Shown: positions 3,827-60,891 of the stretch, piece by piece | Layout of the letters: the number at the start of each line of letters is the position of its first letter | Position numbering within the stretch: position 1 is the first letter of the stretch | DNA from: Nitrospira sp. MA-1 | GTDB taxonomy: Bacteria; Nitrospirota; Nitrospiria; Nitrospirales; UBA8639 | Reading direction: 5' to 3' | Assembly (NCBI GenBank): GCA_032139905.1 | Contig: JAQJDB010000005.1 | Span: 355,001-419,000 of the forward strand | Length of the DNA: 64,000 nucleotides | Program-made: the position numbers and the translations under genes | The notes under the pieces: generated by a model | Told to the model about the DNA's origin: nothing | Database searches by the model: none | The model's input: only the letters and a program-made list of their open reading frames with translations

Positions 3827-3838
3827 GGTAGGTAAATT

Positions 3839-4852: not shown

Positions 4853-5536
4853 ATGGCATCCAAAGCGAAAAAAGCCCAGCCTAAGAAAAAGGGCCCGTTA
4901 CCATCAAAACCGACAAAACCAAAGGTTGCTGCAAAAAAGAAGGCCACTCCCAAGCCTTCCTCATCAACCGGCCATGGGGTGGCTTCAACATCTCGAAAAA
5001 CTTCAACAACGGTCAAAAAGGCATCCGCCCCTAAAACGAAAAAGCCCGCTCAGGTGAGTCCTCGTATCGTTTCTTCGCGTGAGTTACAGGTTGGTGATCC
5101 TGCTCCAGCCTTCTCCCTTCCCGATGACACGGGAAACATTGTGAACTCATCTGAACTTCGAGGGAAAAAAGTGGTCGTGTATTTCTATCCGAAAGATGAC
5201 ACGCCCGGATGTACGACAGAAGCCTGTTCCTTTCGGGATGGTATTCAGGAATTGAGAAAGAGCGGGGCAGTCGTGTTCGGAGTGAGTGCCGATTCAGTCT
5301 CGTCCCACCGGAAGTTTTCCGATAAATTTCAACTTAATTTTCCCTTATTGAGTGATGAGTCCAAGGCCATGATCCAGGCCTATGGCGTGTGGAAGGAGAA
5401 ATCAATGTATGGCCGAAAATATATGGGGATTGAACGAACAACGGTGGTGATTGATGAAGACGGGACCATTAGGAACATATTTCCTAAGGTCAAAGTGAAC
5501 GGGCATTTTTCGGAAGTGCTTGAATCCCTTAGATAG
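4853..5536 (+). CDS. bcp: Bcp/PrxQ-type peroxiredoxin with lysine-rich N-terminal tail
   Basis: This is a thiol peroxidase reducing H2O2 and organic hydroperoxides, 227 residues long. Residues 1-72 are a Lys/Pro/Ser/Ala-rich basic tail resembling histone H1 or AT-hook-like linkers. The peroxiredoxin fold runs from about residue 77 (LQVGDPAPAFSLPDD). The peroxidatic Cys is C120 in TPGCTTEACSF and the resolving Cys is C125, the spacing of the BCP/PrxQ subfamily. Typical BCPs are about 150-160 residues, so the tail is an addition. The ATG at 4853 follows GAGGAGG at good spacing; an upstream in-frame start at 4832 would put that site inside the gene. The tail could bind DNA or another polyanion (inference). 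Confidence 0.9.
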   Translation: MASKAKKAQPKKKGPLPSKPTKPKVAAKKKATPKPSSSTGHGVASTSRKTSTTVKKASAPKTKKPAQVSPRIVSSRELQVGDPAPAFSLPDDTGNIVNSSELRGKKVVVYFYPKDDTPGCTTEACSFRDGIQELRKSGAVVFGVSADSVSSHRKFSDKFQLNFPLLSDESKAMIQAYGVWKEKSMYGRKYMGIERTTVVIDEDGTIRNIFPKVKVNGHFSEVLESLR

Positions 5537-5574
5537 TGTTGCCCGGAGAACCATGACAGGTAAGGGAAAACCTT

Positions 5575-6018
5575 CTACCCATTCTGCTCGTGAGCGTCGC
5601 CAATTTGAGAAAACGTCTCTTCCCCGAAGATGGCATTCGCATTAAGGTAATATTTGAATTCAAGCAGATTATGCGAAGGATCCTCTAGAAAAAACGTTAA
5701 ATGTTCGAGAGGAGTGCCAGAAAAACGTCGACTGGGCTCACGAAAAAATATGAGGCTATTCGTGTGGGCCCGATTCCGGAGTTCATTCCACTCCTCTTCT
5801 GTCTGGCAGATTAACCCGAAATGGCGGGGGTAGATGCTCGTTTGTTGGGGGCCAAGGTCCTTGGTCACATGGGCGACAATTTGGTGTCCGTGAAAATTCA
5901 ATGTGATGGCGACGGAAGACTGGCGGCCCACGCCGCATCCTAAGCCTTGCGCGTAAAACTCTTTCGTGGATTCAATATCCTTGACCGGAATAGAGAGATG
6001 AAAGGTAGAAGAAGACAT
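5575..6018 (-). CDS. VOC-family protein (glyoxalase/dioxygenase fold)
   Basis: This encodes a 147-residue, single vicinal-oxygen-chelate domain starting TFHLSIPVKDIESTKEFY, the usual first beta-alpha unit of glyoxalase I-like proteins. Candidate metal ligands are His near the N-terminus, a middle His (RHFGLIC) and the C-terminal Glu (HNLLEFKYY). The phrase DPSHNLLEFKYY is typical of the glyoxalase-like group that includes fosfomycin and bleomycin resistance proteins. The start at 6018 (MSSSTFHL) is preferred to 6078 because the family motif follows it at once and AAAGGAAT lies upstream. The substrate is unknown. It lies with two other minus-strand genes, but spacing does not prove an operon. 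Confidence 0.8.
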   Translation of the reverse strand: MSSSTFHLSIPVKDIESTKEFYAQGLGCGVGRQSSVAITLNFHGHQIVAHVTKDLGPQQTSIYPRHFGLICQTEEEWNELRNRAHTNSLIFFREPSRRFSGTPLEHLTFFLEDPSHNLLEFKYYLNANAIFGEETFSQIGDAHEQNG

Positions 6019-6137
6019 AGTATAGATTCCTTTACGAATTATCGCATGTTTTGAATGATCAATGAAAATCTGTTGCAATTTTTCGATAAACGGCTAGGGT
6101 TGAGCGTTTCAAAAACAAAGGAGCTTTAAGCAACCCT

Positions 6138-7058
6138 TCAGGGAAAACGGCTTTTTACAACAGGTTTGCCGCGGCCGTTCCAATACCCGGCGCTCATCCA
6201 TGGGGTGGTATGTCGAATCGCAAACCTGCCAGTGCGGTCGAGGATGAGGCATCCGGCCTCCCCCTGTATTCGGCTGACGAGCGCCTTGAGTGCGTAGTTG
6301 GCAGCTTTTAAGGGCGTCCAGCCGAGCCCGAGCAGGATGGCCATATGTTTGGCCATACCGGCACGTATGATGGATTCTCCTAAGCCGGTCATGGAAATGG
6401 CCCCGGCGGTATCATCGGCATACACTCCCGCACCGATTAAGGGGGTATCCCCAACCCGGCCAGGTAACATGACCGCCACTCCCCCTGTTGATGCCCCTGC
6501 GGCAAGATGGCCGGCACGGTCCATGGCGACCGCACCTACGGTGTCATACAATCCTAACTGGCGGTAAAGAGCTTGGGATTTAGTATTCAGGGTGTTTCGT
6601 GAATTTCGTTTGTTCATCAGTGGAGTCGAACTCTTCCGATGGACCAATCGGGCAAGACCGAAATGCCGAGCCAATCGATTCGCATGCCGGCCTACGATTA
6701 ATACATGATCGGTATCGGCCATAATTCGTCGCGCGGCGCAAATTGGATGGAGATATCCTTCCAACCCGGCCACAGCACCAGCCGATAAGGATTGCCCTTC
6801 CATAATCGATGCGTCCATCCGTTGAAATCCGTCGAGTTGTCGAAGCGATCCTCGCCCGGCATTAAACAATCCGGACTTTTCGAGATAGCAGATCATACTT
6901 TCTACAGCATCCAGGGGTGAATGCCCTGTTTTGAGGCATTCGTATCCTCCTATGAGTGCCTCTGTGAGGCACATGGACTGACTGGGGGTCGGTTGTCGGG
7001 AACCTGCACCCCCATGGATCAGGACCCTCGGTATGGGAATAGGTGTTGACCTAGGCAA
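6138..7058 (-). CDS. isoaspartyl peptidase / type III L-asparaginase (Ntn hydrolase)
   Basis: This is a 306-residue member of peptidase family T2, which cleaves itself to expose a catalytic threonine and hydrolyses isoaspartyl dipeptides or asparagine. Visible markers are VLIHGGAGS near the N-terminus, FNAGRGS (residues 65-71) and MDASIMEG. The cleavage site is YDTVGAVAMD, with Thr173 as the new N-terminal nucleophile. After it come the substrate loop GRVGDTPLIGAGVYAD and the TGLGE turn. The length fits the family. The start appears to be TTG at 7058, since no ATG or GTG precedes the conserved VLIHGG strand at a suitable distance. The ribosome binding site is weak. Confidence 0.88.
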   Translation of the reverse strand: MPRSTPIPIPRVLIHGGAGSRQPTPSQSMCLTEALIGGYECLKTGHSPLDAVESMICYLEKSGLFNAGRGSLRQLDGFQRMDASIMEGQSLSAGAVAGLEGYLHPICAARRIMADTDHVLIVGRHANRLARHFGLARLVHRKSSTPLMNKRNSRNTLNTKSQALYRQLGLYDTVGAVAMDRAGHLAAGASTGGVAVMLPGRVGDTPLIGAGVYADDTAGAISMTGLGESIIRAGMAKHMAILLGLGWTPLKAANYALKALVSRIQGEAGCLILDRTGRFAIRHTTPWMSAGYWNGRGKPVVKSRFP

Positions 7059-7111
7059 AGTGCGAAGGGATTAAGAAAAACGGGCGAGGTGAATCGTATT
7101 TTTTTTCATAA

Positions 7112-8629
7112 TCAAACGGATTGTTCAGTTTGTATTTTGTCATAGGAGGTGTACCTGTTGCCACCTTGGGTTTTAGAATAATAGACGGCTTCATCTGCGG
7201 CATGGAGCAAGTCGGTGACCGTGGGATAGGGGTGATCCGGCGTGTGCGTCGCGATGCCAAGAGAAATGGTGACGATGAGTTTGTCTCCGGCTATGTCATG
7301 GGTGGTGCCCCGAAATGCGGAGAGGATTCTCTCGCACACCATGACGGCGGTGGCTGAGGAGGCTTTTGGCAGGATGAGCACGAACTCTTCTCCTCCGTAG
7401 CGTCCGACCGAATCGGTCGTGCGAAGCTTCGACTGTAAGAGATGGGCGGTAGATTGAAGAACCCCATCCCCTGCCTGATGACCATAGGTATCATTGACGG
7501 ATTTAAATTTATCAAGGTCCCCAAAAACCAGGGTCAGACATTCTTGGTTGACGAGAGCATGCTCAAAAGAGGCTTTTAAGTATTTGTCCAAGTAGGCTCT
7601 TGCCAATGCCCCGGTGAGGGGATCATGACGGTGGATTTCTTCCAAATTGTGGAACTTGGCTTCCATGGCGGCATTATTTTGTTGGAGCTCCTGAACTTCC
7701 TTAAGAGTCTGAAGGCTTCTGAGAAGAAGTGCCTCCCGGGCTTTTTCCAGAATGGCTTGAGGTTCGGTCCATGGTTGTAAGTCAGTCCGGAATATTTTCT
7801 CTGTTTCCGGAAGAAGCCCTTGTGTTGTTTCCAATACTTCCATGAGCTCTGCTGGATTGAGATTCAGCGAAGTCTGGGCATTCTCTCTGACCTCTTGTAT
7901 ATAGGCGCTTTGAGAGTCGCGTAAAAAAATTTCCGCAATTTTCCCCGACAGAGACACACAATGGACAAATTTTGCAAGTTCATCTCCCTGGGGAATGCGA
8001 GAGGGGTCATCGCTACCGGCCACGGCCAATCGGAGGCGATCGGGAAAATTCCACTGCGTCAGGAGCCAACTCCCCACGGCGGCATGATTGACTCCCAGGC
8101 ATTGGTATTCATGGGAAATGATTCTGGCATGGGATGTCTGATCCAGGTTAGGGGGATTATAGAGGTCATGGAACACCTGATCGAGGGCGAGCATTCCCAG
8201 ATCTTGCATGAGACTCGAAAGATATAACTCTTCAATTTCAACTAACCCACAGGCCGCTCCAAGAGCCCGGCTGGCTGTTCCTGCCAAAAGCGCACGTTTC
8301 CAATACAGTCCATAATCCAAGCCAGTTCCGCGACTGGTTTGCAGCGATTTCATTAATGAAAAGGACAAGGCAAGTGAAATAGTCGCGTTGAGACCCAGGA
8401 CCAGGACTGCTTGATGAAGGCTTTCAACTTTTTTGCAGTATGGGTATAAGGGAGAATTGGCGATTCGTAGAATTTTACTGGCCAGCGCCGGGTCACAATT
8501 GAGAATTCTGATAATGCTGTGGAGGTCGGTTTCAGGTTCGTTGGCTAAGTTGATAATTTGTACGGCGACGTGTGTTGGGCTGGGAAGACTAGGGCAGGAT
8601 TGTAGTTTCTTTTTCAGTTCGGGTGTCAT
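7112..8629 (-). CDS. HDOD-GGDEF signalling protein (diguanylate cyclase)
   Basis: This is a 505-residue cytoplasmic regulator. Residues about 5-210 form an HDOD domain (SLPSPTHVAVQIINLANEP; ILNCDPALASKILRIANSP), an HD-related fold without the catalytic metal site. A helical linker follows, then a GGDEF domain (HDPLTGALARAYLDKYL; GRYGGEEFVLILPK). The GGEEF loop and a canonical RxxD inhibitory site (RTTD) five residues before it argue for an active, product-inhibited c-di-GMP synthase. The start at 8629 (MTPELKKKLQ) begins just before the conserved HDOD sequence. An in-frame ATG at 8680 would add 17 unstructured residues, and neither has a strong ribosome site. The signal it senses is unknown. 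Confidence 0.9.
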   Translation of the reverse strand: MTPELKKKLQSCPSLPSPTHVAVQIINLANEPETDLHSIIRILNCDPALASKILRIANSPLYPYCKKVESLHQAVLVLGLNATISLALSFSLMKSLQTSRGTGLDYGLYWKRALLAGTASRALGAACGLVEIEELYLSSLMQDLGMLALDQVFHDLYNPPNLDQTSHARIISHEYQCLGVNHAAVGSWLLTQWNFPDRLRLAVAGSDDPSRIPQGDELAKFVHCVSLSGKIAEIFLRDSQSAYIQEVRENAQTSLNLNPAELMEVLETTQGLLPETEKIFRTDLQPWTEPQAILEKAREALLLRSLQTLKEVQELQQNNAAMEAKFHNLEEIHRHDPLTGALARAYLDKYLKASFEHALVNQECLTLVFGDLDKFKSVNDTYGHQAGDGVLQSTAHLLQSKLRTTDSVGRYGGEEFVLILPKASSATAVMVCERILSAFRGTTHDIAGDKLIVTISLGIATHTPDHPYPTVTDLLHAADEAVYYSKTQGGNRYTSYDKIQTEQSV

Positions 8630-9069
8630 AAAAGACTCAGGGTCAGAAGACCTTCGCGAGTGCCTCGAAAGACTCGGCATCTTGGGCTGTTCTAATGCTC
8701 AAATGCCCGGATCCACGAACACGAGGATATATCCGTGATGTTTTCTGATTATGGACATTTCGGCATATTGTTTTGCCATCTGAATAGGCATGACATGATA
8801 AGGCCTTTCTCTCCTTTTGATTCGTAGGCGATCGTCCTGATTTCCTGAATCGAAGCGAGAAAACGGGTTTAAGAAAGCCCAAGTGAAAAGCATGATCCCT
8901 CGATTATGAAGTTGATGTTCCGTAACATTGATGTTGACTGGATTATTTTTGTTGATCTTGCAAAATCTGTGGATGATGAGACGGCCCTCCCGGATAATCT
9001 GGTGAGGTAGCGAATAGAGTCCTCCGGGTGGGGGTCGGGAGCTAAGGGAACTGTTTGGAGGAAGAGTGT
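8630..9069. other. intergenic stretch without a supported gene
   Basis: Two short minus-strand frames (8643-8882 and 8699-8893) overlap each other in different frames, lack clear ribosome sites and show no family motif. I treat the stretch as leader and spacer between two minus-strand genes. Confidence 0.4.
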
Positions 9070-9633
9070 TTAGTGGAAAAGGTGGCTTTGTGCTTGGTTC
9101 AGGCTAGGATCTTGAAAACGGTCAAGGTCCAATCGGACAAAGCCTAGGCCCGCGACACAAAGTTCAAAATTTGTTGAAAGCGTTTGAAAGAGCGCTGGTG
9201 GATTTTTGCCCTGTGGATCTTGATGGGTAGCGACAATGCTGTAGGAGCGTTTGCCGGCTTTGACGTAATCCACCAAAAAGTCTTTGTGGTGAATAAGTCC
9301 GGAGCATTTTATTCGTTTGCAATATTCGGGGAAGAGTCCGGCGAGGAACAGGGTCAGGTCCCCGATGTGACGATGAATATCCCGCTCTTTTTCGGCAGAA
9401 GACTGTTGGCTATGGGATTCGGCCGCATACAGGAGTTCTACTACTGTTTCAACGGGTTCTCCCTCATGGTCTTTGATACGGGCGAGTTGATCGATATGGA
9501 TAAATTCGAGGAGCAGGTTTGAAACGTATTCCGTTACTTGAAAATCCGGCCATCCCAATGCTTCGGAAAAGTTTCGTTCTGTCAACCGGCCAAATAACTG
9601 TCTTAGAGGATGTTGTTCAGGGATTGGTGTCAT
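9070..9633 (-). CDS. conserved-looking hypothetical protein
   Basis: This encodes a 187-residue soluble protein with no signal peptide or membrane helix. Notable stretches are HPLRQLFGRLTERNFSEALG, DFQVTEYVSNLLLEF, an HRHIGDLTLFLAGLFPEYC helix and the C-terminal FELCVAGLGFVRLDLDRF. The composition is that of a normal helical protein, and codon use matches neighbours. The ATG at 9633 (MTPIPEQHP) follows GAGAGGGAAGG at good spacing, so it is preferred over an ATG eight codons upstream. It lies 55 bases before dtd on the same strand. I do not recognise the family and suggest no function. Confidence 0.75.
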   Translation of the reverse strand: MTPIPEQHPLRQLFGRLTERNFSEALGWPDFQVTEYVSNLLLEFIHIDQLARIKDHEGEPVETVVELLYAAESHSQQSSAEKERDIHRHIGDLTLFLAGLFPEYCKRIKCSGLIHHKDFLVDYVKAGKRSYSIVATHQDPQGKNPPALFQTLSTNFELCVAGLGFVRLDLDRFQDPSLNQAQSHLFH

Positions 9634-9688
9634 AGATGCCCTTCCCTCTCTTTCCACCGAATGTCCCTTCGTCAGGGTGTGTCGGTTT

Positions 9689-10186
9689 CTATGTATGTCT
9701 ATCGGCCTGATGTAAAAGGTTCTTAACCTTTTTTACTCCTTTGCCTACCCTGCTGTCCAGGATGAGGGTCATTGGACCATCATTGTCCAGTGCCACGACC
9801 ATCGTCGCACCAAATTTCCCTGCTTGTACCGATAAGCCAAGAGCCAGGAATTGTTCGAGTGTTTCCTGGTATCGCATGCGTGCTTCTTCCGGAGGTGCTG
9901 CCAATTCAAAGCTTGGACGTCGTCCCTTTTCGGTATTGGCCAGTAAGGTGAATTGAGAGACTAGAAGGAGTTCACCATTGATGTCTTGAAGCGCATCAGT
10001 CATTTTCCCTTGTGTGTCAGGAAAAATTCGTAGTCGAGGAATTTTCTCGACCATGAAGGTCACGTCTTGACCGGTATCGCCTTGGGCTACCCCTAATAGA
10101 ATGACGAGCCCACGGTTGATGTGGGCGATGACTTGGTTTTCAACCGTAACTGAAGCCTGTCTGACGCGTTGAATGACGGCAATCAT
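9689..10186 (-). CDS. dtd: D-aminoacyl-tRNA deacylase
   Basis: Dtd removes D-amino acids (and glycine from tRNA-Ala) mischarged onto tRNA. The 165-residue protein begins MIAVIQRVRQASVTV. It carries the catalytic block LLVSQFTLLA and the C-terminal NDGPMTLILDS; most DTDs have GPVT, so the cross-subunit Gly-Pro is kept with a Val-to-Met change. The frame is open far upstream, to 10747, but that part is antiphase to murJ. The ATG at 10186 gives the normal family start and length. It lies 74 bases after murJ on the same strand, so the two may be cotranscribed. Confidence 0.93.
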   Translation of the reverse strand: MIAVIQRVRQASVTVENQVIAHINRGLVILLGVAQGDTGQDVTFMVEKIPRLRIFPDTQGKMTDALQDINGELLLVSQFTLLANTEKGRRPSFELAAPPEEARMRYQETLEQFLALGLSVQAGKFGATMVVALDNDGPMTLILDSRVGKGVKKVKNLLHQADRHT

Positions 10187-10260
10187 GAAACCCTTTCGTG
10201 TGATATCGCCTATCTCAAGCCCAGCGGTCATAAGGACGGTAGGCGTGTCAGTTTGAATGC

Positions 10261-11880
10261 TTATGTTGTGGTAGATGGTTTTCGTATTTTTCGTCGCAAC
10301 ATGAGCTTCAGGTGCGTAAGTTCCTCCGACTTGAATGCGTGGTGAACGGAAAAATATCCAATCGTGCTTGCCGCAAGTGCCAGACTCAACCAGGCAATTT
10401 TTTCTAGGCTCTGTCCTGTTGTCTGCCATAGCGGAAATCCTGCAATCCAGGCGGAAACGGCAATGAGAGGGACAAGGGCTATGGCTGTGCGTACCAGAGA
10501 TAGTCCGAGTGTCTTCCATAGTAATCCCTGAAGCCGATTCCCTAGAATAGTGAGTAAAATGAGTGTGTTTCCCATTGCAGCTAATGCGGTGGCCAGGGCT
10601 AATCCGGTGTGTTGGAGCCATTGCATAAGCCATATTGACAGCACAATATTGAGGATAACCGAAACCACAGCCACAATGGCCGGGGTCTTCGTATCTTGAA
10701 GGGAATAAAACGCGGTTGCCAGAATTCGATAGCTGGCGAACGCCCACAATCCAATTGAAAACCCAAAAAGTGCCGAAGCGGTTCCAACTGTATCTATAGC
10801 CGAAAAGGCACCATGCTCAAAAAATACATGAATAATCGGTATACGCAACATCATCAGCCCAACCATTGATGGAAGGATGATAAATAGCACCATGCGTAAG
10901 CCAAAATTCACCGTTTCCCGAAGTTCATGAATGGCCCCACGGGCTGCTTGGCCGGATAGGGTGGGCAAGATGGCTGTGGCCATTGCCACACCAAATATCC
11001 CTAATGGGAATTGAATGAGGCGCATCCCATAAAACAGATACGTGGGGCCTCCTTGAAAATACGATGCTAAAATCGTGCTGACGGTGAGATTGATTTGGGT
11101 CACAGCTAATCCCAGCAAGGAAGGAATGAGCAGTAACCCCATTCGTTTCACTCCGGGATGCCGCGGATGAAAATTCCAGTACAATGGGAAACCCTGTTTG
11201 TGCAAACTGGGTAATTGCATCAGGAATTGAGCGAGCCCTCCCACTACAATGCCTATGGCTACAGCCAGAATCGCCTGATCAAATAACGGCGAAATGGCCA
11301 CTGCAAAAAAAATGACACAAAGATTGAAAAAGACAGGAGCCAAGGCAGGAACGGCGAATGAATGGAGGGAATTGAGTATCCCCATGGCTAGGGCCGCTAG
11401 GCTTACGAACAGTAAGTAGGGGAACATGATCTGCGTGAGGAGCGTGGTTGTGGCAAGTTGATTCGCTTGACCATGGAGGCCTGGTGCCAGAATCCAGACG
11501 AGATTTGGGGCGGCAACGATGCCCATTAAGGTGACAAAGGTCACGAGCGTCAGGAGTGTGGTGAATGCTGCGCTGGCTAACTCCCAGGTTTCCTGCTTGG
11601 AGCGGGTCGAATGATATTCGGTGAAAATCGGGATAAAGGCGGAAGACATGGACCCTTCCGCAAAAAGTTCTCGCAACAAATTGGGAATTCGATACGCGAT
11701 GTAAAAGGCGTCTGCTGAAGCGTTGGCGCCAAACAAATTGGCGAGAATGACATCTCGGATAAATCCGAGAATCCGACTGCAGAAAGTGGCTACGCCGATC
11801 AGCCCGGCCGCACGACTAATCCGACTGGTCTCTCCGTGAGGAGAAGACGGGACTGATGGAGGTTGAGCTGATTGGGACAT
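10261..11880 (-). CDS. murJ: MurJ/MviN-type lipid II flippase
   Basis: This integral membrane protein of 539 residues exports lipid II for peptidoglycan synthesis. The N-terminus carries the family signature AAGLIGVATFCSRILGF with IRDVILANLFGA, followed by YIAYRIPNLLRELFAEGS. About 14 hydrophobic segments follow, as in the MOP superfamily MviN group. The N-terminal 20 residues are a polar Ser/Pro-rich cytoplasmic tail. The divergent neighbour at 12078 shares the upstream region. The length and all signature blocks are intact. Confidence 0.95.
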   Translation of the reverse strand: MSQSAQPPSVPSSPHGETSRISRAAGLIGVATFCSRILGFIRDVILANLFGANASADAFYIAYRIPNLLRELFAEGSMSSAFIPIFTEYHSTRSKQETWELASAAFTTLLTLVTFVTLMGIVAAPNLVWILAPGLHGQANQLATTTLLTQIMFPYLLFVSLAALAMGILNSLHSFAVPALAPVFFNLCVIFFAVAISPLFDQAILAVAIGIVVGGLAQFLMQLPSLHKQGFPLYWNFHPRHPGVKRMGLLLIPSLLGLAVTQINLTVSTILASYFQGGPTYLFYGMRLIQFPLGIFGVAMATAILPTLSGQAARGAIHELRETVNFGLRMVLFIILPSMVGLMMLRIPIIHVFFEHGAFSAIDTVGTASALFGFSIGLWAFASYRILATAFYSLQDTKTPAIVAVVSVILNIVLSIWLMQWLQHTGLALATALAAMGNTLILLTILGNRLQGLLWKTLGLSLVRTAIALVPLIAVSAWIAGFPLWQTTGQSLEKIAWLSLALAASTIGYFSVHHAFKSEELTHLKLMLRRKIRKPSTTT

Positions 11881-12015
11881 CCGAATAGGAATAATACCGG
11901 AAAGGGTTGAGTTGTTTCACCTGTCAGATGTCAGAGGCGAATGTCTTTCTTTATGATAAGGGAACGCAGAATCTCACGCAGAATCTGGACGCGCACGTTT
12001 TCGCTTAGGCTTGAA

Positions 12016-12044
12016 TTGACACCCTCTGAATCATGCTTTAGCAT
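12016..12044 (+). promoter_or_regulatory. predicted sigma70-type promoter for the spermidine-synthase-like gene
   Basis: A perfect -35 TTGACA (12016-12021) and a -10 TAGCAT (12039-12044, four of six matches) are separated by exactly 17 bases. They lie 34 bases before the start codon at 12078, in the divergent region with murJ. This is prediction only. Confidence 0.45.
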
Positions 12045-12077
12045 CACTTCCCTTTTGTCTATGCACTTCTCCATCTT

Positions 12078-13619
12078 ATGACAAGATCTTCGTTGACTCA
12101 ATCCAGTCTGCCACGATGGTGGTGTTTTGCGACCGCGTTTTCGACCGGTGCGGTGGTGATGGCGCTGGAAATTTTAGGAAGCCGACTCCTCGCGCCGGTT
12201 TTTGGTAGTTCACTGTTTGTCTGGGGCGGGCTGATAGGAGTGGTCCTGGCTGCCATGAGCAGTGGGTATGCTGCGGGCGGTTGGCTGGCTGATCGATACG
12301 CTCCGCAGAGGGTTTTGGCCGGGCTGTTATTGCTGTCCGGTGTTTGGACTCTTTTGTTGTCATGGGCAGGCCAGCCCGTAGTTTTTGGGGTGTCTCGATG
12401 GATTCAGGATCCTCGTTGGGGCCCCTGTTTTGCTGCCAGTGTGCTGTTGGCGGTTCCGGCATTTGGATTGAGCGGTGTTCTCCCGGCCCTTTTGCGTTTG
12501 GCTATCGGGGATATGGGGCATCTTGGACGTCATACCGGAGGCATGATTGCGATTTCAACTATTGGGAGTCTTGTCGGAACCTGGGGGACCTCGTTTTATC
12601 TGTTAACCTGGCTGGGTAGTACCACATTAGTCGCTATCCTTGGCGTAGTCCAGATCTGTCTTGGTCTATGGTGGACATTGAGAGCTGGAATCCTCCAGCC
12701 TGGTTTACAGGTCATACTCCTTTCCTGTGTAGGCGGAATAACCTGGATGGGTTTTCATCCGGTCACCATTTTGCCACCGGCAATTTATCAGGAAGATAGC
12801 CCGTATCAACAGGTGAGGGTGAGTGAAAATGATTTATTCCGTTATCTTATTTTGGACAATACTTTCCACGCGGTGATGTGGAAAGCGACGCCGGAATCGC
12901 TTGCCTTGCCCTATAGTCAAGTCATGATGGGTGTGTTGCCACTTGTTGAGAATCCTAAGCGAGGACTGATCTTAGGCCATGGCGGAGGATCATTGGCAAA
13001 GTGGTTAGGCAAGCACTGGCCGGATTTGGAGTTAGATGTTGTCGAAATGGACCCGTCTGTCGTCCAAGCCGCAGAACGGTATTTTGGTTATACGCCACCG
13101 CTCAACCATCATGTGTATGTGGAAGACGCTCGCACGTTTTTACGAAACAACCCTTACCAGTATGACGTGGTGTGGGTCGATGTGTTTGCCAGGCATCTCA
13201 TTCCGTTCCATGTGACGACTCATGAATTCTTTGAAGAATTACGGAAGCATGTGAACCCTGAGGGTGCCGTTGCCGTGAATCTGGCTTCCTCCGATGCGCC
13301 GGCCAATGTTCGTCGCGCACAAGCGGTGTTGACCACTATGCAACAGACGTTCCCTGAAGTGGTGCCTTACGGGGTCGCGGGCCCTGAATGGTTAGACACT
13401 GCAAAAGGGTCCGTGAACCTGATTTTTTTTGGTGGGAAACCTGTCTCCGTTATGCGCTCTTCGAACTTTTTGGATGTTTTGGCCCGTCAGATGAATCGGG
13501 ACCGATTTCCGTCAGAAGGGTTTGCATTTTTCATGTCACAGGAGCCGGTCGTACTGGCTCCTGGAGAAATTCTGACCGATGATTTCTCTCCGCTAGATTT
13601 ACTTCAGGGGGAAGGGTAA
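12078..13619 (+). CDS. membrane-anchored spermidine synthase-like methyltransferase-fold protein
   Basis: This is a 513-residue fusion. Residues about 15-225 contain roughly six to seven hydrophobic segments (FSTGAVVMALEILGSRLLAP; GLIGVVLAAMSSGYAAGGWL). The C-terminal half is a spermidine-synthase-like Rossmann domain with the nucleotide-binding loop LILGHGGGSLAKWL, the acidic strand VVEMDPSVVQAAERYF, VYVEDARTFL and YDVVWVDVF. Such fusions are common in environmental bacteria, but polyamine synthesis by them is mostly unproven. The aminopropyltransferase active-site pattern is only partly recognisable, so the substrate is uncertain. Start 12078 follows a good predicted promoter. Confidence 0.82.
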   Translation: MTRSSLTQSSLPRWWCFATAFSTGAVVMALEILGSRLLAPVFGSSLFVWGGLIGVVLAAMSSGYAAGGWLADRYAPQRVLAGLLLLSGVWTLLLSWAGQPVVFGVSRWIQDPRWGPCFAASVLLAVPAFGLSGVLPALLRLAIGDMGHLGRHTGGMIAISTIGSLVGTWGTSFYLLTWLGSTTLVAILGVVQICLGLWWTLRAGILQPGLQVILLSCVGGITWMGFHPVTILPPAIYQEDSPYQQVRVSENDLFRYLILDNTFHAVMWKATPESLALPYSQVMMGVLPLVENPKRGLILGHGGGSLAKWLGKHWPDLELDVVEMDPSVVQAAERYFGYTPPLNHHVYVEDARTFLRNNPYQYDVVWVDVFARHLIPFHVTTHEFFEELRKHVNPEGAVAVNLASSDAPANVRRAQAVLTTMQQTFPEVVPYGVAGPEWLDTAKGSVNLIFFGGKPVSVMRSSNFLDVLARQMNRDRFPSEGFAFFMSQEPVVLAPGEILTDDFSPLDLLQGEG

Positions 13620-14046
13620 CCATCCCTTTTGCCTTGAGTCAGCAGGGTTCTTCCTTTAATTCCAAAATACAGCGAAGGATATCCCCAGCACCTTGCTGGG
13701 GAAGCTTCACTAGACAGTTAACCTATTCTTGGTTTTCATTGTGAGAATGGCAGGTGTTAAAAAAGGGCAAGAGGCCACTGTAACAAAAAATGGGTTCCAC
13801 TCATTTGGCGTTCGGCGGGGACTGATTTGCGGTTTTTCTTTCACACGTTTACCAGGTGTCCGTAAGTACAACAGTGGGTGCATGCAAGAATTGCTGGCAT
13901 GAGTTGTCCCGTCCTTCTTCATCCTAGCCGTCGGGAATGGTTCCCGCGTTCTCGCCGTTATCCTAAGGCCGAAGACAAAGGCTGTTGTGGAGACAAAATC
14001 GAAGGGGGAAACATTGTTTAAAGGTGCTGGAGTCCCAGAAACAATC
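13620..14046. other. intergenic stretch with a hairpin
   Basis: No supported gene. At 13685-13703, CCCCAGCA and TGCTGGGG form an eight-base stem with a three-base loop, but no T-run follows. It could be a weak terminator or an RNA end for the preceding plus-strand gene. The rest shows nothing recognisable. Confidence 0.4.
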
Positions 14047-14370
14047 TTAGTTTTGACAGACAGCTTCTGGCCAAAATTTGTAACGGATTTGTGGTAGCTG
14101 AGCGCCGTCAAAATTCGGGAGATCATAAAGACATCGATCAACCACGGCTACCTCATCTTGAGTAAATTCGAAGACTTTCCGTGTTTTCCAAAATTGATCC
14201 AGCGTATAGTAGTCCCCTGTGGCCGGCTTCTCCGCCAGTGCAGCCTGAAGTGCTTTGAATACTGCGGTATCGCAGCCAGGGATACGTCCATTGTTGCGGG
14301 TAATGCACCATTTAATGATTTCGGCTACCCCGTACATGCTTAGATCAATTTTTTGCTTTTCCTCAGCCAT
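14047..14370 (-). CDS. small hypothetical protein
   Basis: This encodes a 107-residue soluble protein beginning MAEEKQKIDLSMYGVAE. The start at 14370 has a near-perfect AAGGAGGAAACC site directly upstream, better than an in-frame start at 14394. It has two cysteines in the middle (KWCITRNNGRIPGCDTAV), a tyrosine-rich stretch (TGDYYTLDQFWKT) and an acidic helix with another Cys (DRCLYDLPNF). There is no signal peptide. Strong translation signals argue that it is real. I cannot assign a family. Confidence 0.7.
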   Translation of the reverse strand: MAEEKQKIDLSMYGVAEIIKWCITRNNGRIPGCDTAVFKALQAALAEKPATGDYYTLDQFWKTRKVFEFTQDEVAVVDRCLYDLPNFDGAQLPQIRYKFWPEAVCQN

Positions 14371-14634
14371 GGTTTCCTCCTTACAAACAGACAAAAAGAC
14401 AAGAGATCTCTATAACATAAAGAGAGTCGTGGCATCCAGTGGGCTACGGTCATCCCTTTCAAAGTAACTTTTGACAAAGTCTGTAGCTTCCTAGAAAAAA
14501 CGAGATTTTTCGGACTACTCGCCGGTTTTACATCATTTGGAAAAATCCGTATACTCGATGCGCTGTGCATGGGTTATCCTGCATCTATTTTGGTACCCTC
14601 TCCACCCACATATTCTGGAGAAAGGCAAGAAGAA

Positions 14635-15822
14635 TTGTATTCCAGTCAGTCCTTGCGTGCTCGACTTGTCATTCCTCTGGGGCTTTTGGGTCTGCTGTCC
14701 TTGGTCGGTTGTCCTACACGCGAGGAGTACCATCCTCCTGATTTGATTTATCATTACCTAGACATTCCAGTGGGGAAAAATCCTACCTCAATCCGGGCAA
14801 GTGATTTTAACGGTGATGGATTTACGGATTTGATCACCAGCAATATTCAGGGAAATTCCTTGTCCCTGCTTTTGGGAAAAGGGGACGGGAGTTTTCAGGA
14901 CCAAAAAACGATTTCTGCTTGTCAGGAGCCGAGGAATGTGGCTGTTGATGATTTTAATCTTGACCACGTGCCCGATTTCGTCGTGGCGTGTTCGGGGGAT
15001 AATCATGCTCTCGTGTTTTTGGGGCAGGGCGATGGCACTTTTTTGCGTGGGGCCCAATACCTGGTTCATCGTACTCCGGTGAGTATTGCCACAGGCGATT
15101 TTAATGAAGATTTTCTTCCTGATTTGGCGGTGGCTCTCCGCAACGACAAAATTCAAATCCTGTTGGGTATGGGCAACGGAAAATTTCGATTGGGGTCATT
15201 ATATGAATATGGAGATACGCCGACCTCTGTGGCTACCGAGGATTTGAATGGAGATAAACATTTGGATCTGGCTGTGACCAATGGAGGGCCGATGAGTCAT
15301 GCTGTGTCGATCTGGTTGGGTTTGGGGGATGGCACCTTCCAAGCTCCAACTGACTATCGAACCGGCAAGCGGCCCTTGGGGGTCTCCTTTGCGGACTTCA
15401 ATACCGATCGAGCCCTAGATCTTCTCGTGATTAACGGTGAGATGAACACGATTACCGTATTTTTAGGAAACGGGGATGGGACTTTTCAAGAGGGAAGAGA
15501 ATCAGGAGGCGATGCCGGTCCAAATTTTGGCGTGGCCCAGGATTTTGACGGAGATAAATTGCCGGATGTGGCGGTTGCCAATATTCAATCCGGGAGTATT
15601 TCGTTGCTATTTGGGAATGGCGATGGGACGTTTCACTATCCTCCAAGGGATTATCCCACCCCGCATGCCCCCTTTGCATTGACCACCCTATTAATTGCCA
15701 CCGATCGGGGAGAAGAACCAGGGTTGGCGGTGGTGAATAATGCATCTAGTAATGTCTCCATTTTTTTACATCATGGGTTGAATCTCCGGAAGAGCCAACT
15801 TTCGGGAACTCCCGCTTCTTGA
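14635..15822 (+). CDS. FG-GAP/VCBS repeat lipoprotein
   Basis: This is a predicted outer-surface lipoprotein of about 395 residues built from FG-GAP/VCBS beta-propeller repeats. Each repeat reads like DFNGDGFTDL, DFNLDHVPDF, DFNEDFLPDL, DLNGDKHLDL, DFNTDRALDL and DFDGDKLPDV, followed by a SVSIWLGLGDGTFQ-like strand. The Asp-rich loops are calcium-binding type, and there are about six to seven blades. The N-terminus has Arg, a hydrophobic core and the lipobox LVGC. The longest frame begins at ATG 14569, but TTG 14635 has GGAGAAAGG nine bases upstream and gives a normal lipoprotein signal, so I prefer it. The ligand is unknown. Confidence 0.82.
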   Translation: MYSSQSLRARLVIPLGLLGLLSLVGCPTREEYHPPDLIYHYLDIPVGKNPTSIRASDFNGDGFTDLITSNIQGNSLSLLLGKGDGSFQDQKTISACQEPRNVAVDDFNLDHVPDFVVACSGDNHALVFLGQGDGTFLRGAQYLVHRTPVSIATGDFNEDFLPDLAVALRNDKIQILLGMGNGKFRLGSLYEYGDTPTSVATEDLNGDKHLDLAVTNGGPMSHAVSIWLGLGDGTFQAPTDYRTGKRPLGVSFADFNTDRALDLLVINGEMNTITVFLGNGDGTFQEGRESGGDAGPNFGVAQDFDGDKLPDVAVANIQSGSISLLFGNGDGTFHYPPRDYPTPHAPFALTTLLIATDRGEEPGLAVVNNASSNVSIFLHHGLNLRKSQLSGTPAS

Positions 15823-56100: not shown

Positions 56101-56952
56101 ATGTCAAAACTACATAATAATTCTGCGACATTTTTCACGTGGCGGATAGTCGGAGGGCTACTCGGATCCCTTCTGGTCTTTCCCCTCCTGCTCTTTGCTC
56201 AGGAACCTTCAATTCCTTCCTCCGATGAAACAACAGATGTTTTTATTCTTCGGCAACTCATCGAAATTCAAAACGAACTGAAAGATGTTCGAAAAGAACT
56301 TGCAGAATTACGTCAATCGGTGGACGAATCAAAGAAAAATTTCAATCTTCCCCTTGCTCCTGCTTCACTTCCTTCTGTTGTTGGCAATGTTGAACTCAAG
56401 GATCATGATCCTACCCTTGGTAATCAGCGAGCAAAAGTGGCGATAGTGGAGTTTACGGATTATCAATGTCCCTATTGTGCTCAATACCATTCAGAAACAT
56501 TTGAAAACCTGAAAAAAGAATATATCGACACGGGAAAAGTGCAATATGTCCTTCGAGATTTTCCGTTGGACTTCCATGCCTATGCCAAAGGGGCCGCTGT
56601 TGCTGCAAATTGTGCCGGTGAACAGGATGCATATTGGCAGATGAACCATCAGCTTTTTTCCCATCAATCCGAGCTTGGGGATGGCTTGTATCAAAAGTTG
56701 GCCGGGTCTTTGGGACTCAACATGGACCTGTTTGAAGCATGCGTCAATAGTCCTGAACAATTACAAAGAGTTGAGGCAGATGTGGTTTACGGCCAAGAGA
56801 TTGGGGTGAACGGAACCCCGACGTTTTTTATTGGACGAGTAGAAAACGGGCAACTCACAGATCCCAAAGAAGTGAGTGGGACTCAACCGTTGTCAGCCTT
56901 TTCAAGAATCATTGAGCCGCTACTCGCAAGTGACGGGCATAGACGCGAATAG
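56101..56952 (+). CDS. DsbA-family thiol-disulfide oxidoreductase
   Basis: This is a 283-residue exported protein. A signal or anchor segment (WRIVGGLLGSLLVFPLLLFA) is followed by a coiled-coil stretch (LRQLIEIQNELKDVRKELAE). The thioredoxin-like domain of the DsbA/BdbD group has active site EFTDYQCPYCAQYHSETF (CPYC), LRDFPLDFH, and the cis-proline loop VNGTPTFFIGR. The leading coiled coil is typical of the Com1/ScsC-like class, which may oligomerise. It likely catalyses disulfide formation or exchange in the periplasm; no DsbB partner is adjacent. It could serve the cysteine-rich exported protein encoded next. Confidence 0.9.
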   Translation: MSKLHNNSATFFTWRIVGGLLGSLLVFPLLLFAQEPSIPSSDETTDVFILRQLIEIQNELKDVRKELAELRQSVDESKKNFNLPLAPASLPSVVGNVELKDHDPTLGNQRAKVAIVEFTDYQCPYCAQYHSETFENLKKEYIDTGKVQYVLRDFPLDFHAYAKGAAVAANCAGEQDAYWQMNHQLFSHQSELGDGLYQKLAGSLGLNMDLFEACVNSPEQLQRVEADVVYGQEIGVNGTPTFFIGRVENGQLTDPKEVSGTQPLSAFSRIIEPLLASDGHRRE

Positions 56953-57106: not shown

Positions 57107-59446
57107 ATGAGATACATGAAGACCTTGCTGACTCTTATTGGTCTACTCCTCGTCATGAGTGCCGACGTGGCCGCCTACGAAGTGATTCCGAATGCCGAGG
57201 CGGATGTCCTCTTCAAACAAATGGAAGAATCCATCTTTTTGTATGACAAAGATCCCTACACAATTAGCAAGGCCGTGGAGAAGAACGATGTGGCAGGCCT
57301 GTCCCTTGCCATTATCTATAATGGTAAGCCGGTCATTCATAAATGGTATGGAGATCGTAACCAGAAAAAGAAGGAAAAGACGACTGCAAATACGATCTAC
57401 CAATGTGCCTCGACGAGCAAGATGGTGTCATCATTAGGCTTTGCTGCAGCTTCGAGGCGAGGGGAACTTAGCCTCGATGAGAGCGTCACGGATTTCAATA
57501 AGAAACATCCTGACACCATTATTACAAAATGGGTCGACAAGGTTTTCAAAGATCATAAGTCCTGGCCTGATGACATTACGCCCCGACGTTTGCTGAGCCA
57601 TACGGCAGGTTTGGACACACATGGAATCGCGAATAAGCCATGGCTTCCTTCCAGCGACCCTCTCAAGGGGGTTATTCTCGGCAGAAACCTTGCGCATGAT
57701 GCCGTTAAACCTATCCACGAACCAGGGACTAAGTATGACTACTCTGGAGGTGGGTATACCGTGGCAGAAGCGATGCTCGAGATCGCTACCGATAAACCTT
57801 TCGAGACCTATCTCCAACGGAATGTTCTTGAGCCCTATGGCATGAATAAGAGCACTTTTGAGGATGGCAGTTCGGACATGGTCCATCTGGCTCGTGGGTG
57901 TAGTCGAGGTGTATGTCTCTATGATGTCCAAGTTTCTGAACTCAAAGCTGCAGGTGGATTGCTGTGCCATCCTGTAGATTACGCACGATTAGTCTCGCTG
58001 ATGATGAACGATGGGGCAGAGTATCTTGAGAACAATGCTGGAACGCAGATCATACCGAAGGCCGACATTGATGAGGTTCTGACAAAGGTGCCTCCTGCTG
58101 AGTATGGACTGGGAGTGGACATTTCGGGGTCTCAATTCTCTCACGGAGGCAAGCACCAGGGATTTGCGACGAACTTTTATGCGCATAGCGATAAGCAGGT
58201 AGGCATTGTCGTGCTCGTCAACGGCAAGTATACATGGGCAAGAAATAAGGAAGTCTACGGAGCAGGCACCCTCAATAATGCGGTGGTCAAAGCGTTTAAA
58301 ATTGCTTTTGGGGTGAGCAACGAATCAGGGAAACCCCTTAAACCAACATGTAGCGAAGACGAGGATTGTGCTGAGGGTCAATACTGTGACAAAGGCCCTG
58401 TTGCGACAATTGGGATTAACAAGTGTAAGGCAGGCAAGAAACGTAATGAAACGTGCAGCCGGAACGATGTCTGTGGCCCCAACCTGACGTGTTACGGCGA
58501 GCCGATCGGGAAATGTGGTTTCCTGGGAACGGTCGTCGTCGGTGATCAGTGCTTTAAGGACAAGGAATGCACATCCGGCAAGTGTGAGAAAGATACCTGT
58601 GTGTGTAAGAGTGACGGCGACTGTCCCAATGGACAAGCCTGTTATACCCCAATTGGAAAAGCCAACTATTGTGCAAGTACGAGCAAGGCCCTTGGGGCCA
58701 GTTGTTCTAAAAACAGCCAATGCGCCTCGGATAAGTGTCAACAAGACCAATGCGTGTGTAAGGGGGATGGTGACTGTCCGAACGGGCAGGCCTGCTTTAC
58801 ACCCGTTGGCAAAGCGAACTATTGCGCGAGTACGAGTAAGGCTCTGGGAGCTACATGTTCCAAGAATAGTGAATGTGCGTCGGACAAATGCCAACAGGAT
58901 AAGTGTGTGTGTAAGGGGGACGGTGACTGTCCCAATGGGCAAGCCTGCTATACGCCGGTTGGGAAGGCGAACTATTGCGCGAGTACGAGTAAGGCCCTGG
59001 GGGCCAGCTGTACCAAGGATAGTCAATGTGCCTCAGACAAGTGCGAACAGGACAAATGTGTATGTAAATCAAACGGCGATTGTCCCAACGGGCAAACCTG
59101 CTATACCCCGGTTGGGAAGGCGAATTATTGCGCAAGTACAAGTAAGGCCCTGGGGGCCAGCTGTACCAAGGATAGTCAATGTGCCTCAGACAAGTGCGAA
59201 CAGGACAAGTGTGTATGTAAATCAAACGGCGATTGTCCCAACGGGCAAAGCTGTTATACCCCGGTTGGGAAGGCGAACTATTGTGCAAGTACGAGTAAGG
59301 CTCTGGGAGCGAGTTGTTCGAAGAATAGCCAATGTGCCTCGGATAAATGTGAACAAGGGGAATGTGTGTGTCAGTCCGACAATGATTGTCCAGGATCGCA
59401 GAAATGTAAAACGCCTGTGACCAAAAAGAATTACTGTACGAAATGA
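57107..59446 (+). CDS. secreted beta-lactamase/esterase-fold protein with cysteine-rich repeat tail
   Basis: This is a 779-residue exported protein. A signal peptide (residues 1-23, ending ADVAA) precedes a class C beta-lactamase/D-Ala-D-Ala-peptidase fold. The SxxK nucleophile is Ser102-Thr-Ser-Lys105, followed by RRLLSHTAGLDTHG and the Tyr212-Ser-Gly motif (KYDYSGGGY). A late HGGKHQG motif stands where others have KTG or HxG. From about residue 411 the protein is Cys-rich. A Dickkopf-like module (CSEDEDCAEGQYCDKG) comes first, then six units of about 51 residues (CVCKxDGDCPNGQxCYTPVGKANYC pattern, in pieces). The cysteines imply disulfides. Its neighbour is a DsbA-like gene. The substrate may be an ester, amide or D-amino-acid peptide. 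Confidence 0.9.
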   Translation: MRYMKTLLTLIGLLLVMSADVAAYEVIPNAEADVLFKQMEESIFLYDKDPYTISKAVEKNDVAGLSLAIIYNGKPVIHKWYGDRNQKKKEKTTANTIYQCASTSKMVSSLGFAAASRRGELSLDESVTDFNKKHPDTIITKWVDKVFKDHKSWPDDITPRRLLSHTAGLDTHGIANKPWLPSSDPLKGVILGRNLAHDAVKPIHEPGTKYDYSGGGYTVAEAMLEIATDKPFETYLQRNVLEPYGMNKSTFEDGSSDMVHLARGCSRGVCLYDVQVSELKAAGGLLCHPVDYARLVSLMMNDGAEYLENNAGTQIIPKADIDEVLTKVPPAEYGLGVDISGSQFSHGGKHQGFATNFYAHSDKQVGIVVLVNGKYTWARNKEVYGAGTLNNAVVKAFKIAFGVSNESGKPLKPTCSEDEDCAEGQYCDKGPVATIGINKCKAGKKRNETCSRNDVCGPNLTCYGEPIGKCGFLGTVVVGDQCFKDKECTSGKCEKDTCVCKSDGDCPNGQACYTPIGKANYCASTSKALGASCSKNSQCASDKCQQDQCVCKGDGDCPNGQACFTPVGKANYCASTSKALGATCSKNSECASDKCQQDKCVCKGDGDCPNGQACYTPVGKANYCASTSKALGASCTKDSQCASDKCEQDKCVCKSNGDCPNGQTCYTPVGKANYCASTSKALGASCTKDSQCASDKCEQDKCVCKSNGDCPNGQSCYTPVGKANYCASTSKALGASCSKNSQCASDKCEQGECVCQSDNDCPGSQKCKTPVTKKNYCTK
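58673..59437 (+). repeat. tandem 153-bp coding repeats (cysteine-rich units)
   Basis: Five in-frame units of exactly 153 bases (51 codons) begin at 58673, 58826, 58979, 59132 and 59285, after a first divergent unit. Each encodes ASTSKALGAxC, then CASDKCxQDxCVCK, DCPNGQxCYTP and VGKANYC. The two units from 58979 and 59132 are nearly identical, which shows recent duplication. They lie inside the beta-lactamase-fold gene. Confidence 0.92.
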
Positions 59447-59920
59447 GGTCAACCTGCAAAGATTCTCGGCTTTGCCGGGCCGGGAGTAGTGAACCTCAGG
59501 AAGCATGGCCTGAATCCTGGTATAAGCGGGCCTGCCTTCATTCAGGATGAATTCAATGCGCCTGATTCCCTATTCCGTTGAGAAATTGTCGCACATTATC
59601 GAGGATCTGGATGGGCGTATCGTTCGTGGTGATGGTCATCCATCATCATGAACGAAAATCGGACCCGGTTGTATCACCGTCATGGTAGGAGCACACCATC
59701 CCTCTGATATAATCAGAATAGCGGAAGAGGATCGCTTAGGTCGGTGCCCGCGGGCTGTTTTAGGGTAATACTTACTTTGAGCGCCAGAGGAAGCCGGGAG
59801 ACCACTTTTTCGGTATGTGGTTCATGTGATTTCGTTCACACAGAAGGAAAGTAGTCCTGTTTGGAGGTCAAAACTTTCTTTTCAGACCGATTGATAAAAA
59901 CCACGAGAGACTATCTGGTC
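59447..59920. other. intergenic stretch upstream of lipoprotein genes
   Basis: No supported gene. The longer frame reaches 59861, but that start lies upstream of a better lipoprotein start at 59921. No tRNA or terminator was recognised. Confidence 0.35.
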
Positions 59921-60520
59921 ATGAAAGAAATAAGAACCCTGATGTTAGTCCTCGGAATAGCCTTTCCTTTCCTGGGATGTGCCACGAATATGGCACCTTT
60001 GCCCGCAAATCTTTCAGTTGATCAAACAATCGTGTTTGGGAAAGTTCAAGCGAGTCTCACCGGACCTACGACGCGATGGTATACTCCGCAGATTCGATTT
60101 TTTGAGCTCATGAATCTCACGACAAAAGAATGGTTTCGGGTGGATATCGAATCTGCCGATTCTCCATTTTTTCTCGCACTGCCGCCAGGCGAATATGAGT
60201 TGGTGCGACTCCAGATCAATGAAGGAGCTTTTCGATCTATGGCTCAATTGAATTCGACCTTCGAGGTGAGTAGGGGGGGACTGAATTATCTGGGAATATG
60301 GGAAGTGAAAATTCACCCACCGACGTATCTTCGGTTGGTCGATGTTTCCGTGGAAACTGATCTAGAGGATGCAAAAGCCCAAGTTCTTTCGCTGTATCCC
60401 GACTTAGCCGGTCTTCCTATCACCTCTCAACTCCCGACACCAAGGGATTCAGAAACGCGTCTAGTGGAAATATCTCCCTATCCTCGGGTATGGTGGTTTT
60501 GCCGCCATTTAACCTGTTAA
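59921..60520 (+). CDS. hypothetical lipoprotein
   Basis: This is about 199 residues. The start at 59921 gives MKEIRTLMLVLGIAFPFLGC, a classical lipoprotein signal with lipobox FLGC, so I prefer it to the 20-codon longer frame from 59861. The mature part is beta-rich (FELMNLTTKEWFRVDIES; FFLALPPGEYELVRLQINEG), resembling a carboxypeptidase-regulatory-like or DUF-type sandwich with a PPGEYELV turn. It precedes a second lipoprotein gene with 65 bases between. The function is unknown. Confidence 0.72.
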   Translation: MKEIRTLMLVLGIAFPFLGCATNMAPLPANLSVDQTIVFGKVQASLTGPTTRWYTPQIRFFELMNLTTKEWFRVDIESADSPFFLALPPGEYELVRLQINEGAFRSMAQLNSTFEVSRGGLNYLGIWEVKIHPPTYLRLVDVSVETDLEDAKAQVLSLYPDLAGLPITSQLPTPRDSETRLVEISPYPRVWWFCRHLTC

Positions 60521-60585
60521 TTATGGATGTATAACAAGTGGTGGGAGAGGACATTCCTGCCGAACCTGATGATCGGAAAGTACTC

Positions 60586-60891
60586 GTGAGAAGATTATCA
60601 TTAATTTTTTTGGCATTTTTACTAATTTTGGCCATGGGCTGCGGTCTTTACCCTCAGGCACAAATGTATGGATGGAAGGGAGTTCACCGTGAAGAGCTCA
60701 TTCGGGTGATGGGGCCACCGACTAAGCAAACCGCTTTGCCTAACGGCGGACAACGGTTGGAATTTATTCAACGAATCACTCGCCATCCATTGGCAGGTGA
60801 ATTGTATGGCACTTCGTATGAGTGTCATAAAACGTTTGAACTCGATGCCGAAGGTATCGTTCAACAGGCAGTTTCTGAACCGGTATGTTGA
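60586..60891 (+). CDS. small BamE/SmpA-like lipoprotein
   Basis: This is about 101 residues. GTG 60586 (VRRLSLIFLAFLLILAMGC) is preceded by GGAAAG and gives a short lipoprotein signal with lipobox AMGC, so it is better than GTG 60538. The mature part GVHREELIRVMGPPTKQT has the BamE/SmpA pattern, in which a turn GPP follows a helix. Full BamE identity is uncertain because the family core is short and divergent. Two cysteines at the C-terminus (YECHKTF, EPVC) may form a disulfide. Confidence 0.68.
   Translation: MRRLSLIFLAFLLILAMGCGLYPQAQMYGWKGVHREELIRVMGPPTKQTALPNGGQRLEFIQRITRHPLAGELYGTSYECHKTFELDAEGIVQQAVSEPVC

What the first reader, a model, noticed from the sequence alone, without database searches (positions are those of the whole stretch)
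57107..59446. Beta-lactamase-fold enzyme with a long cysteine-rich repeat tail
A secreted SxxK hydrolase (Ser102/Lys105, Tyr212) is fused to a Dickkopf-like module and six repeats of about 51 residues with eight or so cysteines each. Such knob-like domains are rare in bacteria outside predators and some myxobacteria-like groups. The fusion may act on a surface polymer or on neighbouring cells, and the adjacent DsbA-like gene could help fold it.
Basis: partly seen in the sequence, partly recalled or inferred. Interest (0 to 1): 0.6.

Follow-up and report, generated by a model that had tools for sequence, protein, structure and literature searches.

The report
Cysteine-tailed secreted enzyme with matching foldase
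A nitrite-oxidising bacterium makes a secreted enzyme with a long disulfide-rich tail next to a gene for a disulfide-forming helper protein, and relatives use the same tail on quite different enzymes, always with such a helper next door, which points to a swappable "enzyme plus folding helper" cassette that seems not to have been described.

Summary
Window 57107-59446 encodes a 779-aa protein: signal peptide, PF00144 serine hydrolase (S102-x-x-K105, Y212, H346), a Dickkopf-like module, five full 51-aa eight-Cys repeats and a partial sixth (56 Cys in 375 residues). Intact orthologues, including one in a single-contig genome, and mostly synonymous differences between repeats rule out an artefact. 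The tail is a shared module: in 15 of 235 Nitrospirales genomes (none found in sampled Nitrospirota outside that order) it follows unrelated heads: PF00144, an M43/reprolysin-like zincin, M23, an HEVGHAFGLDDEY zincin and short zincins. All 15 genomes carry a co-directional DsbA-family gene next to the tail gene(s), from three mutually distant DsbA classes (about 25-30% identity). In one chromosomal slot, different DsbA-plus-hydrolase cassettes replace each other. In sister genome G018 the tail is shared, at 97% DNA identity, with an adjacent metallopeptidase-like gene absent from the window genome, probably through recombination between tails. Best reading: an extracellular hydrolase presented or anchored by a disulfide-rigid stalk folded by a dedicated DsbA. 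Substrate, export route and what the tail binds are untested. New variant of a known kind (dedicated Dsb-client pairs; TraA-type Cys stalks).

The parts
56101..56952 (+). DsbA-family thiol oxidoreductase (283 aa, CPYC), the proposed dedicated foldase, class I
   Evidence: PF13462 E 1.1e-33, PF01323 E 2.5e-15; 81-84% orthologues in G003, G016 and G018, the only genus members with the tail gene, versus 49% or less elsewhere
57107..59446 (+). whole gene: secreted PF00144 serine hydrolase with Cys-rich repeat tail (779 aa)
   Evidence: orthologues
57107..57175 (+). probable signal peptide (MRYMKTLLTLIGLLLVMSADVAA, AxA-type end)
   Evidence: read from the sequence; no signal-peptide predictor was available
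57263..58234 (+). PF00144 (S12 / class C beta-lactamase fold) domain, residues 53-376
   Evidence: E 4.8e-46, 157.9 bits against a cut-off of 27
57410..57421 (+). SxxK motif S102-T-S-K105
   Evidence: invariant in A2
57740..57748 (+). second motif Y212-S-G
   Evidence: sequence; invariant in A2
58142..58150 (+). putative third motif H346-G-G
   Evidence: invariant in A2; assignment by analogy with PF00144 enzymes
58349..58597 (+). opening Dickkopf-like Cys module, residues 415-497
   Evidence: best PF04706 stretch 415-463; 36.3 bits in the genome search
58598..58750 (+). Cys repeat 1
58751..58903 (+). Cys repeat 2
58904..59056 (+). Cys repeat 3
59057..59209 (+). Cys repeat 4
59210..59362 (+). 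Cys repeat 5
59363..59443 (+). partial sixth repeat and C-terminus (CVCQSDNDCPGSQKCKTPVTKKNYCTK), no hydrophobic sorting tag
59447..59860 (+). 3' flank, which matches the flank downstream of the metallopeptidase-tail gene of G018: trace of recombination between tails

Best explanation
The locus is a client-foldase cassette. The hydrolase is exported by its signal peptide; the adjacent DsbA-family protein oxidises the 56-Cys tail into a rod of small knotted domains, with its own electrons probably passed to the genome's VKOR-thioredoxin fusion. The rigid tail then holds the catalytic head away from, or attached to, a surface or matrix, where it cleaves a D-amino-acid or ester bond, most likely in peptidoglycan or another envelope or matrix polymer outside the cell. 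Shown: the architecture, the intact catalytic motifs, purifying selection, the tail shared among unrelated hydrolase heads, and adjacency to a DsbA in every tail-bearing genome. Inferred: that this DsbA folds this tail, that VKOR recycles it, and that the tail is a stalk or binding module. Substrate and location are the least certain steps.
For: (1) A profile of the eight-Cys unit finds tails in 15 of 235 Nitrospirales genomes; in all 15 a co-directional DsbA-family gene lies next to the tail gene or heads its array. The window genome has four Thioredoxin_4 genes in 4.76 Mb, so a chance neighbour is expected well under 1% of the time (about 4,500 genes assumed). (2) The DsbAs form three mutually distant classes; on the tree the tail-adjacent label needs 4 changes, at least 3 forced. 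(3) One zincin head (G270 versus G229, 64-66%) sits with class II in one genome and class III in the other. (4) In one chromosomal slot (568-aa gene, ECF-like gene or LuxR-type regulator, Aat) G129, G295, G364 and G370 hold DsbA-II with M43-like, M23 and other heads, while G229 and G123 hold DsbA-III with a zincin. (5) Class I orthologues above 80% occur only in the four carriers among 40 relatives; class II in 8 of 231 genomes, 7 of them carriers. (6) The same kind of tail follows PF00144, M23 (PF01551 E 3e-11), M43/reprolysin-like and other zincin heads. (7) VKOR-thioredoxin protein in the genome. (8) A two-repeat model (pLDDT 74.6) has short hairpins; its best match, weak, is the Dkk4 N-terminal region. 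(9) In TraA of Myxococcus the related Cys repeats are taken to be a presentation stalk (PMC3325183, PMC12045341).
Against: G234 has a class II DsbA without a Cys-tail neighbour. No tail ligand, export route or substrate is shown. The full-length structure model was useless (pLDDT 38.8) and the fold matches of the tail are weak (E 0.12; Z at most 2.6). PF00144 covers beta-lactamases, D,D-peptidases, D-aminopeptidases and esterases, and no close characterised relative was found. The 15 genomes are related, so independent events number about three to five, not 15.
Confidence: 0.6

Rival explanations
1. The tail binds a specific ligand (glycan, peptidoglycan or a receptor on other cells) and aims the enzyme, like a Cys-rich targeting domain; rigidity is secondary.
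For: Same C-terminal place on five kinds of hydrolase head; repeat number varies (five full repeats in the window, four in the G018 orthologue), as in multivalent binding arrays.
Against: Repeats are near-uniform and dominated by Cys, Gly, Asn and Lys; no lectin or LysM-type domain was found; nothing shows binding.
Confidence: 0.3
2. The tail only protects or stabilises secreted enzymes against proteolysis or harsh conditions and has no presentation or targeting role.
For: Very Cys-rich small domains are generally stable (established knowledge); the tail occurs on several peptidases that could digest themselves or each other.
Against: Length and repeat number far exceed what stabilising a head needs; PF00144, M23 and zincin enzymes of other bacteria work without it.
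Confidence: 0.15
3. The tail is a C-terminal secretion signal read by an unknown exporter.
For: Always C-terminal and shared by unrelated heads.
Against: C-terminal ends differ between clades (KNYCTK, KYECK, NNHCE, KCEAKK) and there is no conserved sorting motif.
Confidence: 0.08
4. The DsbA next door is a coincidence or serves general folding; the neighbourhood reflects shared inheritance only.
For: Carriers are related, within three genera; G234 keeps a class II DsbA without a tail gene.
Against: Three distant DsbA classes, partner swaps and cassette replacement in one slot; class I and II orthologues nearly confined to carriers.
Confidence: 0.06

Closest known systems
PF00144 / MEROPS S12 serine hydrolases (AmpH, EstB, ClbP, Pab87 2qmi, Flp-like)
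   Same: fold family and catalytic motifs (157.9 bits; best PDB match 2qmi, E 3e-15)
   Different: no such tail in those; overall resemblance too low to transfer a substrate (about 31% or less to the plasmid-borne relatives found)
TraA of Myxococcus xanthus (TIGR04201 Cys repeats, PMC3325183)
   Same: signal peptide, functional head, long Cys-rich repeat region thought to be a stalk
   Different: head is a PA14-like recognition domain, not an enzyme; carries MYXO-CTERM; the window tail scores 24.3 bits, just under the TIGR04201 cut-off of 25; no DsbA pairing in the passages read
DsbL/DsbI with arylsulfate sulfotransferase AssT (uropathogenic E. coli, Salmonella; PMC6067686)
   Same: an extra Dsb oxidase devoted to a particular secreted enzyme
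   Different: here the client is a repeat tail shared by many unrelated enzymes, DsbA classes are interchangeable, and no dedicated DsbI/DsbB was seen in the cassette
Animal Dickkopf proteins (PF04706) and cystine-knot peptides
   Same: Cys spacing; PF04706 cut-off met; best weak fold match is Dkk4
   Different: bacterial tandem arrays; sequence and fold matches to solved structures are not significant (E about 0.1), so common descent is not shown

Membership tests
PF00144 serine hydrolase | profile match above the curated cut-off | tested here: met
   157.9 bits against 27
PF00144 serine hydrolase | SxxK plus Tyr motif, conserved in orthologues | tested here: met
   S102/K105, Y212-S-G, H346-G-G invariant
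PF00144 serine hydrolase | hydrolase activity | not testable with these tools
   needs purified enzyme
class C beta-lactamase (NF033085) | equivalog cut-off | tested here: not met
   51.1 bits against 415
Dickkopf_N (PF04706) | profile match above the curated cut-off | tested here: met
   62.2 bits against 25, six stretches
Dickkopf_N (PF04706) | Dickkopf fold and disulfide pattern | tested here: inconclusive
   Dkk4 top Foldseek hit, E 0.12; VIA Z 2.0; tail profile against PDB: DKK chains first, E about 0.1
TIGR04201 Myxo_Cys_RPT | curated cut-off | tested here: not met
   24.3 bits against 25 for the window protein; 13.6-20.2 for other tails
MYXO-CTERM surface protein | C-terminal Cys motif, hydrophobic stretch and basic end | tested here: not met
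   C-terminus read directly...KTPVTKKNYCTK, no hydrophobic stretch
DsbA-family oxidoreductase (window 56101-56952) | thioredoxin-fold profile and CxxC | tested here: met
   PF13462 117.2 bits against 23.2, CPYC
Rcas_1661 family thioredoxin-like (seleno)lipoprotein (NF041057) | equivalog cut-off | tested here: not met
   111.6 bits against 190
dedicated Dsb oxidase of the DsbL/AssT kind | specific oxidation of the neighbouring client | not testable with these tools
   only genomic linkage tested (15 of 15 genomes)

The most novel reading that the evidence does not exclude
Nitrospirales carry a previously undescribed modular system in which a Dickkopf-like disulfide-rich stalk is a common chassis for interchangeable secreted lytic enzymes, delivered as swappable cassettes together with their own DsbA, and used to attack neighbouring cells or matrix polymers in biofilms.
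Probability: 0.3. Interest if true: 0.8.

Novelty: new variant of a known kind. Interest (0 to 1): 0.58.

Why it matters
If right, autotrophic nitrite oxidisers, which are not usually thought of as predators or competitors, own a modular set of secreted lytic enzymes built on one disulfide-rich stalk, each cassette bringing its own disulfide catalyst. That would be a clear natural case of a foldase and its client module moving together, would give a DsbA-client rule testable by gene removal, and would offer a bacterial route to making Cys-dense repeat proteins. It also bears on how Nitrospira holds its place in flocs and biofilms.

Tried and rejected
Assembly artefact: rejected (single-contig relative, synonymous divergence between repeats). 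AmpC beta-lactamase: equivalog cut-off not met. Full-length structure prediction: pLDDT 38.8, unusable. Tail on plasmids: no match. Second DsbA paralogue of the window genome beside a Cys-rich protein: checked and not so, although the G010 paralogue is two genes from one. MP head elsewhere in the genus: found only in G018, so whether it was lost from the window lineage or gained in G018 is not settled. Papers: nothing found on Dickkopf-like tails or DsbA-client cassettes in Nitrospira; subscription papers are not held. The single-linkage grouping joins the MP heads with the short zincins, but the MP query listed no short zincin, so they are kept apart. Promoter and terminator scans gave no more than shuffles.

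Full report
Observation. The frame at 57107-59446 is real. It encodes a signal-peptide-like start, a PF00144 domain (residues 53-376, E 4.8e-46) and a Cys-rich tail recognised by PF04706 Dickkopf_N (E 5.6e-17). TRF reports a 153-bp unit, 5.1 copies. By Cys spacing the tail is an opening module (415-497), five full 51-residue repeats with eight Cys each, and a partial sixth; 56 Cys lie in the last 375 residues and four in the head.

Not an artefact. Repeats differ mostly by synonymous changes (for example 30 synonymous and 6 non-synonymous codons between repeats 1 and 2). Between window and relatives dN/dS is 0.02/0.12 to 0.06/0.7 in the head and 0.02/0.30 to 0.07/1.1 in the tail. The single-contig genome G018 encodes the same protein (96%) with one repeat fewer. 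The draft genomes G016 and G003 break inside the repeats, as expected of short-read assemblies.

The tail is a shared module. In G018 the next gene downstream is a 793-aa protein with another head (HEVGHAFGLDDEY, zincin-like) and the same tail, 96.7% identical in DNA over 646 bp. The window genome lacks that head, yet its 3' flank matches the flank after the G018 metallopeptidase gene, and it lacks the spacer between the two genes. Recombination between the tails explains this; the direction is not settled.

Distribution. A profile of the eight-Cys unit (A1) finds tails in 15 of 235 Nitrospirales genomes, three genera, and in 14 of 395 genomes sampled across Nitrospirota, all of them Nitrospirales. 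Heads: PF00144 (G000, G018, G016, G003); M43/reprolysin-like, M23 and HEVGHAFGLDDEY proteins in arrays of up to three genes (G129, G295, G364; parts in G366 and G370); short zincins (G023, G270, G229, G123, G181, G316). The zincin heads are named from HExxH motifs and weak profile matches; M23 is significant (E 3e-11).

The DsbA rule. In every one of the 15 genomes a co-directional DsbA-family gene lies beside the tail gene or at the head of the array; in the 13 loci measured the gap is 4-188 bp in all but G123 (484 bp, with a short frame). The window genome has four Thioredoxin_4 genes, so chance adjacency is improbable even if only three independent events are counted. The partners form three classes about 25-30% identical to one another; class I is closer to a paralogue in its own genome (37%) than to classes II and III. 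The tree needs at least three changes of the 'tail-adjacent' label. G270 and G229 have the same zincin head (64-66%) with different DsbA classes. In one chromosomal slot, marked by a 568-aa gene with an ECF-like gene, a LuxR-type regulator and Aat in varying completeness, G129, G295, G364 and G370 hold DsbA-II with multi-enzyme arrays while G229 and G123 hold DsbA-III with a zincin. Class I orthologues above 80% are confined to the four carriers among 40 relatives. Class II occurs in 8 of 231 genomes, 7 of them carriers; the eighth, G234, has no Cys-rich neighbour, so my prediction failed there.

Mechanism. Shown by sequence: export signal (by inspection), intact catalytic motifs, selection on head and tail, modular tail, linked DsbA, and a VKOR-thioredoxin fusion able in principle to re-oxidise DsbA. 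Inferred: the linked DsbA folds the tail; the tail is a rigid stalk or binding array outside the cell; the head cuts a D-peptide or ester bond in an envelope or matrix polymer. The stalk idea follows TraA of Myxococcus, whose Cys repeats (TIGR04201) are taken to present its recognition domain (PMC3325183, PMC12045341). The dedicated-oxidase idea follows DsbL/DsbI and AssT (PMC6067686).

Structure. The full-length model failed. A two-repeat model built from the window's own repeats and two relatives reached pLDDT 74.6. Its best PDB match is the Dkk4 N-terminal region, weakly (E 0.12), followed by cystine-knot and other Cys-rich peptides; VIA-align gives Z of at most 2.6. The tail profile alone finds DKK1, 2 and 4 chains first, at E about 0.1. 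'Dickkopf-like' is thus fair as a description, not as proof of descent.

Judgement. Parts of it (PF00144, Cys stalks, dedicated Dsb pairs) are known; the combination, its interchangeability and its presence in nitrite oxidisers appear undescribed within the papers searched. That the host is a nitrite oxidiser rests on its place in Nitrospirales next to named MAGs, not on a metabolic test here.

Noticed in passing
L014 7467-9848 (G018) and window 59447-59860: Adjacent genes with unrelated heads share a nearly identical tail (96.7% DNA), and the window genome keeps the 3' flank of the gene it lacks: gene conversion or deletion between tails.
   Followed up: partly
L039 4455-5705, L102 5284-6585, L104 5539-6864, L108 8651-9901, L126 7836-9083: A LuxR-type regulator of about 416 aa sits beside the DsbA-hydrolase cassettes of one genus and also beside the lone class II DsbA of G234; it may control them.
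   Followed up: partly
L073 (G006) 463-7257, 7258-8076, 8533-15375: A DsbA relative (49% to the window DsbA) lies between two giant secreted-looking genes of about 2,270 aa, the second with MopE-like and RHS-like repeats.
   Followed up: no
L074 (G010) 3576-5021: A 481-aa secreted-looking protein with 28 Cys lies two genes from a DsbA paralogue; similar Cys-rich frames appear in L055 and L064 but not beside the window genome's paralogue.
   Followed up: partly
window 59861-60520 and 60538-60891: Two conserved small genes downstream without Pfam matches; the first has a lipobox-like LGCA, the second looks like an SmpA/OmlA-type lipoprotein by eye.
   Followed up: no
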